NCBI RefSeq assembly: GCF_001005315.1
Contig: NZ_LBMG01000055.1
Coordinates: 1 to 33,226 of the forward strand
Length of the DNA stretch: 33,226 nt
DNA from: Kordia jejudonensis
GTDB taxonomy: Bacteria; Bacteroidota; Bacteroidia; Flavobacteriales; Flavobacteriaceae
Direction: 5' to 3'
The notes under the pieces are model-generated. The model was not told where the DNA came from, made no database searches, and worked only from the letters and a program-made list of their open reading frames with translations. This document shows positions 5,503 to 28,520 of the stretch, piece by piece. Numbering within the stretch: the stretch's first letter is position 1; the number at the start of each line of letters is the position of its first letter. The translations under genes were made by a program, and so were the position numbers.

Positions 5503-6753
5503 ATGAGTAGTCCAAATCCATTTCCAATTACAATTGTTAATAATTCAGGATCAAAAAGCGATGTTCATATTACAATTAAAGGAATGAACGCTGCTATTGC
5601 AAACAATAAAAATCAGCAGTTTTATAACCTAACCACGAAGACATGGAGTCAGGAAGCTGTTTCATTAAATATAGGAACTGCAAAAGAAACGGTAATTGAT
5701 ATTCCAAGTATAGAATCTGGTATTGTATATCTTTCTTTTGGAAGTGCTTTGGAATTTGCAAATCGTATTTCGCCACCAAATATTGGAAATCCTTCTGATC
5801 CAAGTTTTAATGTTGTTTATGATAAGTTTGAAATATCATTTTTGCCTTCAGACGGTTTTCCATATATAGATATTACCAATGTAGATTTCTTCTGTGTTCC
5901 GTTGCAATTACAAGAAAAATTACCAAATGGAACTACAAACGGACCCAAAGGATTTGCCACAAGCAGAAAAGCTATTTTTAAATCGTTTAGTGATGGACTT
6001 ACTGGACATTGGGAAAAAATTATTCAAACGCCAATAGATAAGGAAACTGGGAAGCCTAAAGAAACGATACGAATTATTGCACCAAACAAAGCATTGGTGT
6101 CAAATGATGTTTTAGATAATGATTTTGATGCGTCGAGTTTTCAAAACTATATAGATGCAGTTTGGGATTTTTATGCAGAAGGAAAAGGAAAGTCGGTTGC
6201 AGTAGATATGTCTGAAATTGCAGCTTTTAATCCAGGTTATGAAAATGTTGTATTTGAAGGAATTGTAAAAGACGGAGAATTTGTATTTTCAGAAAAAGGT
6301 GGAAGCGGAAGTTTGCCGAGTATTTCGTTTGCCAAACCATCGGGAAACAGTCAGATAAAAGGAAGTGTTTTTGGATGCGAAGATGTATTTGCTGCGCCCA
6401 ATAAAACGCCACGGTCCGTTCCTGCTAAAAACTTAGGAGCAGCATTTAATGTTGGTATTTTGGCACATCCAAATATTGAAGGAAATACATTGTTTTTAAT
6501 GCCGCCAACGACAAAAACGCAAAAAGAAAAAAACTGGACAACGTACAGATGTGATTATTATACAAATACGATGACATTAAAAGATGGAACTGTCTTAGAT
6601 TGTTTCAATGTATATTCAAAATGTATACATGAAAATGCTATTGATAGTGATGATTATGGTTTTGCTTTTGATGATGTAACACAAAGCGATTCTACACTAG
6701 CCGATAAAGATGCCATCGCAGCTATTGTTACAATACAGAACATTGAGTTGTAA
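5503..6753 (+). CDS. GH64 / thaumatin-like beta-1,3-glucanase family protein
   Basis: Probable laminaripentaose-producing beta-1,3-glucanase fold (GH64, thaumatin-like superfamily), which would cut beta-1,3-glucans such as laminarin, curdlan or callose. Typical features: an N-terminal FPITIVNNSG strand (7-16), the WEKIIQTP..IRIIAPNKAL region (about 169-199), NYIDAVWDFYAEGKG (about 215-229), a CEDVFAAPN motif (about 287-295) and a C-terminal block, IHENAIDSDDYGFAFDDV (about 375-392), close to the HE/D..GY.FPYDDV block of the family. At 416 aa it matches the catalytic module alone, with no carbohydrate-binding or T9SS domain. No signal peptide is seen, and no in-frame ATG exists between this start and the upstream stop at 5425-5427. 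The protein may be cytoplasmic or leave by a route I cannot see. Family call from memory of motifs, not from a search. Confidence 0.72.
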   Translation: MSSPNPFPITIVNNSGSKSDVHITIKGMNAAIANNKNQQFYNLTTKTWSQEAVSLNIGTAKETVIDIPSIESGIVYLSFGSALEFANRISPPNIGNPSDPSFNVVYDKFEISFLPSDGFPYIDITNVDFFCVPLQLQEKLPNGTTNGPKGFATSRKAIFKSFSDGLTGHWEKIIQTPIDKETGKPKETIRIIAPNKALVSNDVLDNDFDASSFQNYIDAVWDFYAEGKGKSVAVDMSEIAAFNPGYENVVFEGIVKDGEFVFSEKGGSGSLPSISFAKPSGNSQIKGSVFGCEDVFAAPNKTPRSVPAKNLGAAFNVGILAHPNIEGNTLFLMPPTTKTQKEKNWTTYRCDYYTNTMTLKDGTVLDCFNVYSKCIHENAIDSDDYGFAFDDVTQSDSTLADKDAIAAIVTIQNIEL

Positions 6754-25054: not shown

Positions 25055-25528
25055 TTATCGATGATGATACGGTTCGTTTCGTAAAATAGTAAAGGCTCTG
25101 TAGATTTGTTCTACGACAAATAAACGCACCATTTGATGTGAAAAGGTCATTTTTGATAAGGAAATTTTCCCTTGCGCTTTCGCGTAAACAGTCTCAGAAA
25201 AACCATACGGTCCGCCAATGACGAACACCAACGTTTTAATACCCGAATTCATGCGTTTTTGTAAATAGCTTGAAAATTCTACGGAAGTGAACTGCTTGCC
25301 GTTTTCATCTAACAAAACCAACATATCAGTTGGAGACAATTTTTTAAGAATCAATTCGCCTTCTTTTTCTTTTTGCTGTGCTTCACTTAAATTTTTAGTG
25401 TTTTTCAGATCGGGAATAATCTCCAAGTCAAATTTTACGTAGTGTGACAAACGTTTTACATACTGATCAATTAACAGTTGTAATTGTTTGTTATCTGTTC
25501 GTCCTATAGCAAGCGCTTTAATATTCAT
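25055..25528 (-). CDS. rlmH: 23S rRNA pseudouridine-1915 N3-methyltransferase
   Basis: SPOUT-class methyltransferase that modifies pseudouridine 1915 in helix 69 of 23S rRNA on the 70S ribosome. Features: LDENGKQFTSVEFSSYL (about 92-108), FVIGGPYGFSETVY (about 122-135) with the SAM-binding knot, LSKMTFSHQMVRLFVVEQIYRA and the conserved C-terminus NEPYHHR. 157 aa is standard. A TATTTTTG box lies four bases before the ATG, so the mRNA may be leaderless. It is the first gene of an rlmH-rdgB unit. Confidence 0.97.
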   Translation of the reverse strand: MNIKALAIGRTDNKQLQLLIDQYVKRLSHYVKFDLEIIPDLKNTKNLSEAQQKEKEGELILKKLSPTDMLVLLDENGKQFTSVEFSSYLQKRMNSGIKTLVFVIGGPYGFSETVYAKAQGKISLSKMTFSHQMVRLFVVEQIYRAFTILRNEPYHHR

Positions 25529-25696: not shown

Positions 25697-25843
25697 ATGA
25701 AAAAAATTCAATTAAAATCGCTTACGCTAAACAAGAAAGTAATTTCTAGAGCTCAAATTATTACCGCTAAAGGTGGTGGGCCAACTGTAGGTTCTGACTG
25801 TATTTCCCATTGTTTAGGCCACGAATGTGAAGATCATAAATAA
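25697..25843 (+). CDS. Double-glycine-leader RiPP precursor peptide 1 (3 Cys, lanthipeptide-like)
   Basis: 48-aa peptide. The leader MKKIQLKSLTLNKKVIS matches the LxLxKxxIS pattern of the three larger peptides downstream and ends in GGG at 26-28, the same position as their GG. The core is 20 residues with Cys35, Cys39 and Cys44 and Thr/Ser at 30, 33 and 37 (TVGSDCISHC). This composition allows thioether rings, but modification is not proven; a disulfide bacteriocin or signalling peptide is possible. A hairpin terminator follows 16 bases after the stop. No maturation enzyme is nearby. Confidence 0.78.
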   Translation: MKKIQLKSLTLNKKVISRAQIITAKGGGPTVGSDCISHCLGHECEDHK

Positions 25844-25859
25844 GCAATGTTTACAATAC

Positions 25860-25896
25860 AAAAGGTTGTCTAAAGTGTTTTGGACAACCTTTTGTT
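25860..25896 (+). terminator. Terminator after precursor peptide 1
   Basis: AAAAGGTTGTC / GACAACCTTTT is a perfect 11-bp stem with a 12-base loop, running into T residues. Confidence 0.85.
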
Positions 25897-26242
25897 ACTA
25901 ATTTCTACAATTTTTCTACATTCACAAGTACAAAGTAGCCAACTTAACTTCAATTAATGCTACAATTCTTTTCTTTTAAAATAATTAGGAAGGATTTATC
26001 GGAATATATTAGGCTAAACTCATCACGTTTTTAGTTGCGGACTTCACATAGGACAATCTAACCAATTTCCATTCATAACTTTTTTAGTTGCATTGATCCC
26101 TTTGTCTTAAAAAACTACCGTATTCATAATGCTTTTGCAATACTTTAGTTACAGCGTAAAACATAAAAATACATATGAAATTGTATAAAAGAATCCTGTT
26201 TTGCGAATACTTACATTAATATAAACTCAAAATTTTATTAGA
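25897..26242. other. AT-rich gap before precursor peptide 2
   Basis: I see no gene here. The phrase TTTTTAGTTGC occurs twice (near 26029 and 26080), and TACCGTATT near 26116 recurs upstream of precursor 3 (near 26919). No exact TAnnTTTG promoter was found; a promoter for the 73-aa peptide must lie here but cannot be named. Confidence 0.4.
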
Positions 26243-26464
26243 ATGAAAAAACAACAAGTAAGCTCATTAGCATTAAAGAAAAACACTATTTCAAATTTTA
26301 ATATTGAAAAAATAAATGGAGGTGTACTCACAGGCATGGGATGTAATAATGTAACCTATAATTGTGTTGACACTTTGCCTACAAATTTGTGTGAACGTAC
26401 AATTATTAATTGTCCACCATTAACTTACACGTGCTACTTATCATTACGTTGTGGTACAATGTAG
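26243..26464 (+). CDS. Double-glycine-leader RiPP precursor peptide 2 (6 Cys, lanthipeptide-like)
   Basis: 73-aa peptide. Its leader, MKKQQVSSLALKKNTISNFN, is nearly the consensus of the local family and ends in GG at 26-27. The 46-residue core has six Cys (34, 41, 50, 57, 64, 70) at spacings of 6-9 and many Thr/Ser (VDTLPTNLC, TYTCYLSLRC), so each Cys has a hydroxyl residue nearby, as in lanthipeptide cores. Peptides of this type are annotated as class I lanthipeptides in Kordia and relatives; that label rests on the leader. No lanB/lanC gene lies in the window. It has its own terminator. Confidence 0.82.
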   Translation: MKKQQVSSLALKKNTISNFNIEKINGGVLTGMGCNNVTYNCVDTLPTNLCERTIINCPPLTYTCYLSLRCGTM

Positions 26465-26488
26465 ATGCTTGTGGTTAAATTATCATAT

Positions 26489-26524
26489 AAAAGCATCTAT
26501 TTCATTTGAATAGGTGCTTTTTTT
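26489..26524 (+). terminator. Terminator after precursor peptide 2
   Basis: AAAAGCATCTATT / AATAGGTGCTTTT, 13 bp with one G-U pair, followed by T. The AAGCATC arm recurs in the terminators of peptides 3 and 4. Confidence 0.85.
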
Positions 26525-26738
26525 ACGAAGTCTTTTTACCAAATTGTGAAATAAAAAGATTTAAAATTATGTATTCGATGAAAAGTAATATCGAAGTCAG
26601 GTTAATAAGTAGTATGTAATGTAATTTTCCGAATGCATTAATGTTGTTAATGTATTTGATAACAATTACTAATATTTTTCATGCGTCATTATAATGTTAG
26701 AATGCTTAATTTTATATCAAATTGTTAAGGCTTACGCC

Positions 26739-26814
26739 ATGAAAAAGAAAAAAATTAGGAACTGCTATAACTCCTAATTCAAAGAAACATCATTCCAACA
26801 AATGATGTTTCTTT
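26739..26814 (+). pseudogene. Vestigial precursor cassette
   Basis: An ATG followed by Lys codons (MKKKKIRNCYNS, 12 codons, then TAA at 26775-26777) runs directly into a perfect 14-bp terminator hairpin (26781-26794 / 26801-26814, AAAGAAACATCATT). The start resembles the MKKK start of precursor 3, but leader and core are missing. Deleting one base of the A7 run would extend it only to 21 residues. It lies in the 498-base gap between precursors 2 and 3, where nothing else is seen. Interpreted as the remnant of a lost precursor; a regulatory leader peptide is possible. Confidence 0.4.
26781..26814 (+). terminator. Terminator of the vestigial cassette
   Basis: AAAGAAACATCATT / AATGATGTTTCTTT is a perfect 14-bp stem with a ccaaca loop. 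The T-run after it is short. Confidence 0.7.
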
Positions 26815-26962
26815 TGTTTAAGAAGTCACACTCTTTGTAAAGTCCTGATTCTTAATATGAAATTAGAAGTGACATTTTGTAAAACGTCATAACCTACGTT
26901 TTTTCTCATGTTGTAAATACCGTATTTTTAAATTACAATTATAAACCACAAAAACTTAAATC

Positions 26963-27187
26963 ATGAAAAAAAAGAATTTAAAAAAGTTACGTATTAGTAA
27001 AAACACAATTTCTGGAGTTGGAAGTACAAGTTTAATTGGAGGAATCAGTGGAGGCGCATGTCAGCCAGTAGGACCAGCGCCTGAAACTATTGGTTGTCCA
27101 CCACATTCTATTCCACACACAAATTGTATTTGTACAGGCGATAGAACCTATTTTGACAGAACTTGTGGTTCTTGTTACGATTGGTAA
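26963..27187 (+). CDS. Double-glycine-leader RiPP precursor peptide 3 (6 Cys, lanthipeptide-like)
   Basis: 74-aa peptide. Leader MKKKNLKKLRISKNTISGV with GG at 26-27 and again GG at 30-31. The core of about 43 residues has six Cys (33, 45, 55, 57, 68, 71) and is Pro-rich in the middle. The segment TIGCPPHSIPHTNC (42-55) aligns with TVGCPEPSIVRTNC in precursor 4, so the two cores are paralogous; the ends differ. C-terminal residues are CGSCYDW. A private terminator follows, and no modification gene is adjacent. Confidence 0.82.
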   Translation: MKKKNLKKLRISKNTISGVGSTSLIGGISGGACQPVGPAPETIGCPPHSIPHTNCICTGDRTYFDRTCGSCYDW

Positions 27188-27207
27188 AATTTCCAAGTAA
27201 AATATAC

Positions 27208-27241
27208 AAAAGCATCATCTTTTTTAGGTGATGCTTTTTTT
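27208..27241 (+). terminator. Terminator after precursor peptide 3
   Basis: AAAAGCATCAT / GTGATGCTTTT, 11 bp with one G-U pair, then a T-run. Confidence 0.88.
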
Positions 27242-27316
27242 ATTTCATCAAGGATGTAATTTTTTGGGTAATGAAATTTTATTTCCAACCCATGTTACTA
27301 TAACATAAAAATTAAT

Positions 27317-27523
27317 ATGATGAAAAAGCAAAAAGTAAAAGCGCTTTCTTTAAAGCGAAACACAGTATCAAATTTTAAAAGCATGACCGTAAAAGGTGGA
27401 GTAAGTGGCGGCACATGTGATGTTTCTTGTAATTGTGTTGGAATAACTGTTGGTTGTCCAGAACCTTCCATCGTACGTACAAACTGTTGTTTGTCTTATC
27501 AATTATCATGTATTTGTAATTAA
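27317..27523 (+). CDS. Double-glycine-leader RiPP precursor peptide 4 (8 Cys, lanthipeptide-like)
   Basis: 68-aa peptide with leader MMKKQKVKALSLKRNTVSNF. The second Met (27320) is the likelier start, since it puts GG at 26-27 as in the other three. The core has eight Cys (34, 38, 40, 47, 57, 58, 65, 67) in only about 40 residues, the densest of the set, and ends LSCICN. The middle TVGCPEPSIVRTNC matches precursor 3. Eight Cys against few spare Ser/Thr could also suit disulfides. It lies directly upstream of nadC, separated by a terminator. Confidence 0.82.
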   Translation: MMKKQKVKALSLKRNTVSNFKSMTVKGGVSGGTCDVSCNCVGITVGCPEPSIVRTNCCLSYQLSCICN

Positions 27524-27546
27524 TTGACACACAAAAGCAACAAATG

Positions 27547-27576
27547 AAGCATCATTCTTACGAGTGATGCTTTTTT
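27547..27576 (+). terminator. Terminator after precursor peptide 4
   Basis: AAGCATCATT / AGTGATGCTT, 10 bp with one G-U pair, followed by six T. It insulates the peptide cassette from nadC. Confidence 0.88.
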
Positions 27577-27659: not shown

Positions 27660-28520
27660 ATGATCTCAGAAACGCAATTTCAAAAAGAATTAGAGCTAAT
27701 TATTTCAAATGCTATCCGTGAAGATGTTGGAGATGGCGATCACAGTTCATTGGCTTGTATTCCAGCTACAGCAGAAGGAAAAGCAAAATTATTAGTCAAA
27801 GATGAAGGGATAATTGCTGGCATCGAATTTGCAAAAATGGTTTTTGATTATGTCGATCCAGCTATGAAAGTAGAAACGCTCATTGAAGATGGAAGCAGCG
27901 TGAAATATGGTGACATCGCTTTTTATGTTACGGGAAAATCACAATCGATCTTAAAAGCGGAACGTTTGGTGCTAAATGCCATGCAACGTATGAGTGCCAT
28001 TGCAACCAAAACAAATATGTTTGTAAAGCTACTTGAAGGCACAGGTACAAAAATTCTTGATACGCGTAAAACAACTCCAGGAATTAGAGCATTGGAAAAA
28101 TGGGCTGTAAAAATTGGCGGCGGCGTCAATCATCGGTTTGCATTGTATGATATGATTATGCTAAAAGACAATCATATTGATTTCTGTGGCGGCATCACGC
28201 AAGCGATCACGCAAACAAAAAATTATCTTCACGAAAACAATCTCGATTTAAAAATTATTGTTGAAGCACGTAATTTGCAAGAAATAGAAGAAATATTACA
28301 AACAGATGGTGTTTACAGAATCCTAATTGACAATTTCAATTATGAAGATACGCGAAAAGCTGTCAAAATGATTGGCGATACTTGTTTGACAGAATCTTCA
28401 GGTGGCATCAATGAAAAAACCATTCGTGATTATGCCCTTTGTGGTGTCGATTATATCTCATCAGGTGCTTTAACACATTCTGTATACAACTTAGATTTAA
28501 GCCTAAAAGCTGCAGAATAA
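27660..28520 (+). CDS. nadC: Nicotinate-nucleotide pyrophosphorylase (carboxylating)
   Basis: Makes nicotinate mononucleotide from quinolinate and PRPP in de novo NAD synthesis, in the cytosol. Features: REDVGDGDHSS near residues 21-31, ERLVLNAMQRMSAIAT, DTRKTTPGIRALEKWAVKIGGGVNHRF (about 138-164), MLKDNHI, IIVEARNL and a final DYISSGALTHS. I start it at 27660 (MISETQFQKEL), giving the usual 286 aa; the frame is open further upstream, but that part overlaps the terminator of peptide 4. Its stop overlaps the next start as TAATG, so it is coupled to the YihY/BrkB gene. Confidence 0.95.
   Translation: MISETQFQKELELIISNAIREDVGDGDHSSLACIPATAEGKAKLLVKDEGIIAGIEFAKMVFDYVDPAMKVETLIEDGSSVKYGDIAFYVTGKSQSILKAERLVLNAMQRMSAIATKTNMFVKLLEGTGTKILDTRKTTPGIRALEKWAVKIGGGVNHRFALYDMIMLKDNHIDFCGGITQAITQTKNYLHENNLDLKIIVEARNLQEIEEILQTDGVYRILIDNFNYEDTRKAVKMIGDTCLTESSGGINEKTIRDYALCGVDYISSGALTHSVYNLDLSLKAAE

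What the first reader, a model, noticed from the sequence alone, without database searches (positions are those of the whole stretch)
25697..27523. Array of four double-glycine-leader Cys-rich peptides with no maturation genes nearby
Seen: four short genes in one 1.8-kb stretch share an MKK..L.L.K.(T)(I/V)S leader and a GG at residues 26-27 (allowing for the MM start of the fourth), while their cores differ in Cys number (3, 6, 6, 8) and length. Each is followed by its own terminator. Known: leaders of this kind are annotated as class I lanthipeptide precursors in Kordia and relatives. Inference: these are separately expressed substrates of a shared remote modification and export system, i.e. 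a diversifying precursor bank.
Basis: partly seen in the sequence, partly recalled or inferred. Interest (0 to 1): 0.75.

Follow-up and report, generated by a model that had tools for sequence, protein, structure and literature searches.

The report
Kordia's scattered lanthipeptide precursor bank
Four small cysteine-rich peptide genes in this stretch belong to a bank of about 180 similar genes scattered over one marine bacterium's genome, apparently served by a single distant set of lanthipeptide-making and export genes; some members sit beside likely membrane sensors.

Summary
In detail: four short genes (25697-27523, + strand) share an MKK..L.(L/I).(K/R)...(I/V)S leader ending in GG, have 3, 6, 6 and 8 Cys in their cores, and each is followed by a hairpin. 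They are a fragment of something larger. The genome (genus Kordia) carries at least 181 such genes in 85 loci on 42 contigs, but one class I dehydratase (split LanB N and C), clustered with LanC, a C39-peptidase ABC exporter and HlyD on another contig. All 11 Kordia genomes held have exactly one LanB and 84-150 leader matches (150 scored at most). Ser/Thr are placed 3-6 residues before Cys, as lanthionine rings need. Cores that can be matched between species are conserved, so 'diversifying bank' is half right: genes come and go at a locus, many cores are kept. In print already: Kordia as a RiPP-rich genus and up to 176 precursors in a Bacteroidota genome (2024). New here, as far as I read: the one-machinery layout across the genus, and nine regulators of a TPR-AraC family each followed by a leader peptide; at the LanB cluster that peptide's core evolves fast, a possible lanthipeptide pheromone/receptor system. 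No chemistry was tested.

The parts
25055..25528 (-). rlmH-like gene that flanks the slot on the left (flank, not part of the system)
   Evidence: ORF of 157 aa; found in 10 of 11 Kordia genomes and used as synteny anchor; the name RlmH is recalled, not from a call
25697..25843 (+). precursor 1, 48 aa, leader to GG at 26-27, core with 3 Cys
   Evidence: NF038153 14.4 bits, under cut-off; similar core in four other Kordia at the same place
25858..25895 (+). hairpin after precursor 1 (17 pairs)
   Evidence: -22.0 kcal/mol, z -5.4; no clear T run
26243..26464 (+). precursor 2, 73 aa, GG at 26-27, core with 6 Cys
   Evidence: NF038153 17.6 bits, under cut-off
26489..26521 (+). terminator-like hairpin after precursor 2
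   Evidence: -17.2 kcal/mol, z -5.5; T run; not in the list
26739..26814 (+). 12-codon ORF MKKKKIRNCYNS (26739-26777) plus its own hairpin (26781-26814), possibly an eroded precursor
26963..27187 (+). precursor 3, 74 aa, GG at 26-27, core with 6 Cys
   Evidence: relative at the same slot in genome G004
27208..27238 (+). terminator-like hairpin after precursor 3
27317..27523 (+). precursor 4, 68 aa (67 aa from the second ATG at 27320), GG, core with 8 Cys
   Evidence: relative at the same slot in G005
27546..27573 (+). terminator-like hairpin after precursor 4
27660..28520 (+). nadC-like gene that flanks the slot on the right (flank)
   Evidence: 286 aa, tblastn matches beside rlmH in eight other Kordia loci; the name is recalled, not from a call

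Best explanation
The four genes are members of a genome-wide bank of class I lanthipeptide precursors, each probably its own transcription unit. The shared basic leader (MKK..L.L.K...IS) is recognised by one split dehydratase (LanB N plus LanB C) and the LanC cyclase encoded on contig C143. These dehydrate Ser/Thr and join them to Cys lying 3-6 residues further on. The C39 domain of the neighbouring ABC exporter cuts after GG and exports the ringed core with the HlyD protein. Shown: gene anatomy, number and scatter of precursors, the single LanB, the cluster, the ring-compatible spacing, conservation of matched cores. Inferred: separate transcription, recognition, dehydration, ring formation, cleavage, export. 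What the products do is unknown; the kept cores suggest that many have a job of their own.
For: At least 181 leader-plus-Cys genes; all 181 kept have a Cys in the core; GG in 135 of the 140 found by the leader model or the finding and in 37 of 41 found by a regular expression that asks for G[GQMAS]. One LanB in 11 of 11 Kordia genomes. C143 cluster: Lant_dehydr_N 506 bits, Lant_dehydr_C 247, LANC_like 158, Peptidase_C39 130 with ABC domains, HlyD (a 140-aa part scanned, 42 bits), two precursors. Leaders over cut-off go with LanB in 299 family genomes: 13 of 14, against 12 of the other 285 (Fisher P 4e-15; relatedness not corrected). Genome G003, one contig, has one LanB, one LanC-like gene and 87 leader matches; 19 of its 21 weakest are real precursors. 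More Ser/Thr at -3 to -6 than at +3 to +6 of Cys in 116 of 129 untied non-redundant cores. PMC7268733 (passages) describes LxLxKx5L leaders ending in GG with C39 proteases in Bacteroidetes class I clusters.
Against: None of the four window leaders reaches the NF038153 cut-off. The last L of LxLxKx5L is A, F, V, F in the four; gene 3 has I for the second L and gene 4 R for K (read). Ser/Thr are also enriched at +2 of Cys (z 8.9), which I put down to CP[S/T] repeats. Other LanC genes (C160 with a nucleotidyltransferase, C2 with HopA1/APH, and two weaker, C156 and C146) could serve some precursors. Most other Kordia genomes have further strong C39 proteins. Family genome G199 has a leader over cut-off and no LanB. 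No chemistry, expression or mass data.
Confidence: 0.82

Rival explanations
1. The peptides are exported by the C39 transporter as disulfide-bonded, otherwise unmodified Cys-rich peptides; the LanB/LanC cluster acts only on the precursors beside it.
For: C39 exporters also carry unmodified double-glycine bacteriocins (general knowledge). Of the precursors, only those at C143 are physically linked to LanB.
Against: Leaders and LanB co-occur across 299 genomes. Ser/Thr sit at -3 to -6 of Cys (z 4.4 to 6.8) and are depleted at +4 to +6 (z -1.9 to -2.7), which disulfides do not ask for. The clustered and the scattered leaders match one model.
Confidence: 0.1
2. Several enzyme sets share the bank: the C143 LanB/LanC for many, the C160 nucleotidyltransferase-LanC pair and other enzymes for some.
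For: The own genome has five LanC-like matches; a precursor lies beside the C160 LanC and nucleotidyltransferase, an association already noted for Kordia in PMC11118758 (passage).
Against: G003 keeps 87 leader matches with only one LanC-like gene. In the fetched regions (about 7% of the genome) tblastn finds LanB, LanB C and the nucleotidyltransferase once each, and LanC relatives only at C143, C160 and C2.
Confidence: 0.35
3. The scattered genes are mostly decaying duplicates with no function.
For: Locus content varies between species, with none in two of the nine slots bounded by both flanks; a possible remnant lies at 26739.
Against: dN/dS 0.17 in the cores of 16 cross-species pairs, chosen for alignable cores out of 36; hairpins after all four window genes; 145 of 146 model matches have no stop inside.
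Confidence: 0.04

Closest known systems
Prochlorosins / synechococsins (ProcM, SyncM; picocyanobacteria)
   Same: One lanthipeptide synthetase with many precursors whose genes can be scattered (29 for ProcM, PMC12328550, passage; 79 for SyncM and scatter, PMC10783134, passages), leader ending in GG, variable core
   Different: There class II LanM and Nif11-type leaders; here class I split LanB plus LanC, short basic leader, at least 181 precursors, and cores that can be matched between species
Bacteroidetes class I lanthipeptides with LxLxKx5L / GG leaders (PMC7268733, passages; PedA15.2 of Pedobacter lusitanus, named in a passage of PMC12328550)
   Same: Leader type, GG site, C39 protease, LanB and LanC
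   Different: That survey looked only within seven genes of LanC, so scattered genes like those of the window were out of its reach
Kordia as a RiPP-rich genus (PMC11118758, section 7 read; passages)
   Same: Same genus; up to 176 RiPP precursors in a Bacteroidota genome; Kordia lanthipeptide clusters, one with LanC plus nucleotidyltransferase
   Different: Precursor counts by machine learning; the parts I read do not report one LanB per genome, locus turnover, ring spacing or paired regulators; its supplements were not open to me
NCBIfam NF038153 lant_leader_L1a
   Same: Leader model that finds the bank
   Different: The four window members fall under its cut-off

Membership tests
class I lanthipeptide precursor (LanA) | leader matches NF038153 at its curated cut-off | tested here: not met
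   14.4, 17.6, 8.5 bits and none against 22; 27 of 146 matches elsewhere in the genome pass
class I lanthipeptide precursor (LanA) | LxLxKx5L leader motif of Bacteroidetes class I | tested here: inconclusive
   L9, L/I11, K/R13 present; the last L is A, F, V, F (alignment; motif from PMC7268733)
class I lanthipeptide precursor (LanA) | GG at the end of the leader | tested here: met
   G26 G27 invariant in the four
class I lanthipeptide precursor (LanA) | core with Ser/Thr placed N-terminal to Cys | tested here: met
   tested for the bank, not for the four alone: 116 of 129 untied cores
class I lanthipeptide precursor (LanA) | LanB and LanC encoded in the genome | tested here: met
class I lanthipeptide precursor (LanA) | LanB and LanC beside the precursor | tested here: not met
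   no match in the window; the cluster is on contig C143
class I lanthipeptide precursor (LanA) | (methyl)lanthionine in the product | not testable with these tools
   needs mass spectrometry
prochlorosin-like system | one synthetase with many scattered precursors | tested here: met
   1 LanB, at least 181 precursors in 85 loci; that LanB acts on them is inferred
prochlorosin-like system | class II LanM enzyme and Nif11 leader | tested here: not met
   the enzymes are Lant_dehydr_N, Lant_dehydr_C and LANC_like; no Pfam hit for the window peptides
C39 double-glycine exporter (PCAT) | C39 peptidase, ABC membrane and ABC ATPase domains in one chain | tested here: met
   130, 100 and 96 bits in L035:6757-8961

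The most novel reading that the evidence does not exclude
Part of the bank is a set of peptide pheromones with cognate one-component receptors: regulators with a periplasmic TPR domain, one transmembrane helix and a cytoplasmic AraC-type HTH, each followed by a leader peptide that is exported through the lanthipeptide machinery and sensed by that regulator. The genome would hold about nine such private circuits, a lanthipeptide signalling network in a Gram-negative bacterium.
Probability: 0.3. Interest if true: 0.87.

Novelty: new variant of a known kind. Interest (0 to 1): 0.64.

Why it matters
If one LanB/LanC pair really handles about 180 different cores, it would exceed the largest substrate set that I met in the passages read (79 for SyncM), and it would be a class I case, of which I saw none of this size there; the enzymes would be a tool for making libraries. 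It also shows why mining near enzyme genes undercounts: most of these precursors lie far from any. The paired regulators make a testable case for peptide signalling in Bacteroidota.

Tried and rejected
Considered and rejected: chance ORFs (0 of 14 control genomes over cut-off); enzymes hidden beside the scattered genes (one search finds LanB, LanB C, LanC or nucleotidyltransferase relatives only at C143, C160 and C2; two weak hits of the exporter, 26-28% identity, at L057 and L088); decay of unused copies. The idea that all precursors share one operator failed: the inverted repeat TACGGT-N3-ACCGTA (up to 2 mismatches) is upstream of 17 of 181, and 8 of the 25 sites in the fetched DNA are not upstream of a kept precursor; 1 of 51 in other Kordia. 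The Bacteroidota box TANNTTTG (recalled) is only mildly enriched, 33 of 181 against 21 (sd 4.5) in shuffles, though 20 of the 33 sites lie 30-49 bp before the ATG; none of the four window genes has it. A tRNA check of seven loci found none. Literature searches for a TPR-AraC peptide receptor showed nothing to the point among the titles and abstract starts listed (15 of 21 papers, 12 of 60).

Rows dropped before counts: of 146 model matches, 4 were never fetched (C157, C24 twice, C68), 4 were dropped because the frame did not start with M or ran over 160 aa, and the 2 in the window were re-added together with the other two window genes, giving 140. Of 50 further ORFs found by a leader regular expression in regions already fetched, 9 were dropped by hand (5 that do not look like precursors, 3 second starts, 1 doubtful), giving 41. 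Two of the 181 (C163:6564, 7027) have a different leader type. The regulator-distance test counts the C143 regulator, which was the query and whose region was fetched for LanB; without it 13 of 31. Its null is uniform placing, which ignores islands. The 16 pairs are best core matches with a score of at least 60 out of 36 precursors, not reciprocal, precursor 1 four times; this favours conserved cores. The seven structural precursors compared were picked by hand, one per locus.

Full report
What is in the window. Four ORFs on the + strand at 25697-25843, 26243-26464, 26963-27187 and 27317-27523 lie between an rlmH-like gene (25055-25528, -) and a nadC-like gene (27660-28520, +) (both names recalled). 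Alignment shows M1 K2 K3 L9 S17 G26 G27 invariant in all four. The cores hold 3, 6, 6 and 8 Cys. Hairpins follow all four; the scan lists those after genes 3 and 4. Pfam finds nothing at E up to 10; NCBIfam finds only NF038153 'class I lanthipeptide' leader, below its cut-off, in three of the four. Between genes 2 and 3 lies a 12-codon ORF MKKKKIRNCYNS with its own hairpin (26739-26814).

The genome-wide bank. The window is contig C169 of a 5.36-Mb, 217-contig genome. It has 146 matches to NF038153 at E up to 10, 27 over the cut-off; the first look had 220 candidates and scored only 150, so this is a floor. Controls: 5 of 14 well-known genomes ring at that E-value, none over the cut-off. I fetched the DNA around 140 of the 144 matches outside the window, kept 136 and added the window's four; a leader regular expression in the same regions gave 41 more after 9 of 50 were dropped by hand. 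The 181 lie in 85 loci (gaps over 3 kb) on 42 contigs, are 33-102 aa long (median 67), and all have 1 to 11 Cys in the core. The cores are 12% T, 12% C, 7% S; the leaders have almost no Cys.

The machinery. The genome has one match to Lant_dehydr_N and one strong C39 match (E 1e-38; two others are weak, E 2e-4 and 1e-3). Both lie on contig C143, about 7.4 kb apart. The cluster reads: C39-ABC exporter (735 aa), HlyD (a 140-aa part scanned), two precursors, a 73-aa leader peptide, a TPR-AraC regulator (570 aa), LanB C (305 aa), LanB N (751 aa), LanC (405 aa), then a TPR protein and an ECF sigma factor. The genome has four more LanC-like matches, on C2, C160, C156 and C146.

The genus. A contig of genome G002 has 5,033,129 bases, the length of the Kordia algicida OT-1 record found by the LanB scan, and G000 is in the same genus as G002, so the window is from Kordia. 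Its LanB is 87-97% identical to eight Kordia records. All 11 Kordia genomes held have exactly one LanB, a C39 protein within 10 kb of it, and 84-150 leader matches with at most 150 scored. Only G000 and G010 have a single strong C39 match; the other nine have one to four further ones. Genome G003 (one contig) has 87 matches; I read the 21 weakest and 19 are clear precursors. G003 has one LanB and one LanC-like gene, so there the clustered pair is the only one of its kind on offer. Over 299 genomes drawn from the family, 14 have a leader over cut-off and 25 have LanB (one of these a 34-bit fragment); 13 of the 14 are among the 25 (Fisher P 4e-15; two of the 13 are Kordia, and relatedness is not corrected). 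Outside Kordia the highest counts at E up to 0.1 are 22, 17 and 7 (G297, G204, G087; at most 25 scored).

Ring-compatible cores. In the 181 cores Ser/Thr are enriched 3, 4, 5 and 6 residues before Cys (z 6.5, 6.0, 6.8, 4.4 against shuffles of each core) and depleted 4-6 after it (z -2.6, -2.7, -1.9). At +2 they are enriched too (z 8.9), which I put down to CP[S/T] repeats; +3 is near expectation (z 1.1). In 146 cores with near relatives removed, 116 have more Ser/Thr at -3 to -6 than at +3 to +6, 13 fewer, 17 tie. This is what rings closed from Dha/Dhb to a later Cys would need; it is indirect evidence.

Turnover and selection. Ten of 11 Kordia genomes have the rlmH match, and in nine of these nadC is beside it on the stretch fetched. 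The slot holds 4 (own), 1, 2, 1, 1, 0, 3, 0 and 1 precursors in these nine; G003, where nadC was not on the stretch, has one near rlmH and another further on (by a leader regular expression, so divergent ones may be missed). Precursor 1 is the most kept: a core like GPTVGSDCxSHCLGHECxxHK occurs in five of the ten, with mean core identity 0.72 and leader identity 0.60. Over 16 cross-species best matches (of 36 precursors examined) mean identity is 0.70 in cores and 0.65 in leaders, the core being the more conserved part in 11; dN/dS is 0.17 and 0.27, with dS 1.4 and 1.0. So many cores are kept, and change is largely by gain and loss of whole genes.

Regulators beside leader peptides. The C143 regulator has an N-terminal hydrophobic stretch, TPR repeats, a hydrophobic stretch at 388-408 and an AraC-type HTH at 481-562. 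The inner hydrophobic stretch was also seen in the two others checked (C142); for the rest the membrane layout is assumed by homology. The genome has 32 relatives at E up to 1e-15. Fourteen of 32 lie within 600 bp of a kept precursor, 1.8 expected for random places (P 6e-10), and nine have a leader peptide on the same strand 90-144 bp downstream of the match. These nine partner peptides have fewer Cys (median 2 against 5, P 7e-4). In all nine Kordia LanB loci examined, the regulator is followed at 84-90 bp by such a peptide (ending in GG or AG), and in four of six Aquimarina LanB loci with a regulator hit one follows at 128-393 bp, judged by eye; six other loci had no regulator hit at E 1e-20. 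Across the nine Kordia loci, mean identity is 0.50 in the TPR part, 0.87 in the HTH, 0.65 in the partner leader and 0.28 in the partner core, while structural precursors of the same cluster (seven loci) keep 0.68 in the core. A fast sensor with a fast core beside slower neighbours is what pheromone/receptor pairs look like; HTH domains are however usually slower than sensor domains, and no co-divergence test was made.

A shared operator in a minority. TACGGT-N3-ACCGTA with up to two mismatches stands upstream of 17 of 181 precursors, 16 of them 47-64 bp before the ATG; shuffles give 0.44 sequences. One site at 54 bp was found among 51 precursors of other Kordia, 0.1 expected. Two window genes have only half sites (near 26113 and 26915).

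What is known. PMC7268733 (passages) described the leader motif and GG in Bacteroidetes class I clusters but looked within seven genes of LanC. [quoted passage not shown] PMC10783134 and PMC12328550 (passages) give 79 and 29 precursors for SyncM and ProcM. Two searches for Kordia with lanthipeptide or RiPP precursor listed 5 and 7 papers. Of these I saw passages of PMC7477175, PMC10734526, PMC11118758, PMC9248904 and PMC13101523 and only the listing of the others; none of what I saw reports one LanB serving the bank or the regulator pairs. Subscription papers and supplements were not open to me.

Verdict. Observation confirmed; interpretation partly supported: a shared remote system is very likely, 'diversifying' is half right. 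New variant of a known kind.

Noticed in passing
L139:1095-8079 (own genome, contig C2): Another LanC locus: a 478-aa protein with repeated GPTGTxGC units in the 70 residues seen, an APH-family kinase, a HopA1-family protein, LanC and a radical SAM protein; a possible repeat-type RiPP, without LanB.
   Followed up: partly
L039:3187-5773 (own genome, contig C160): LanC (390 aa), nucleotidyltransferase (272 aa) and a leader peptide side by side without LanB; the association is mentioned in PMC11118758 (passage).
   Followed up: partly
upstream of 17 of 181 precursors in the own genome: Inverted repeat TACGGT-N3-ACCGTA, 16 of 17 at 47-64 bp before the ATG; binding protein unknown.
   Followed up: partly
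26739-26814: 12-codon MKKKKIRNCYNS ORF with its own hairpin between precursors 2 and 3, possibly an eroded copy.
   Followed up: partly
contig C163, starts at 6564 and 7027, - strand (in L065): Two Cys peptides with another leader, MKxNILNIKGATAISKxEQSxINGG, perhaps a different double-glycine family.
   Followed up: no
L128: A LanB 51% identical to the query on an 8-kb contig binned as Candidatus Aminicenantes: transfer or a binning error.
   Followed up: no
G199:C1:425735-425800: A leader over cut-off in a family genome with no LanB match.
   Followed up: no
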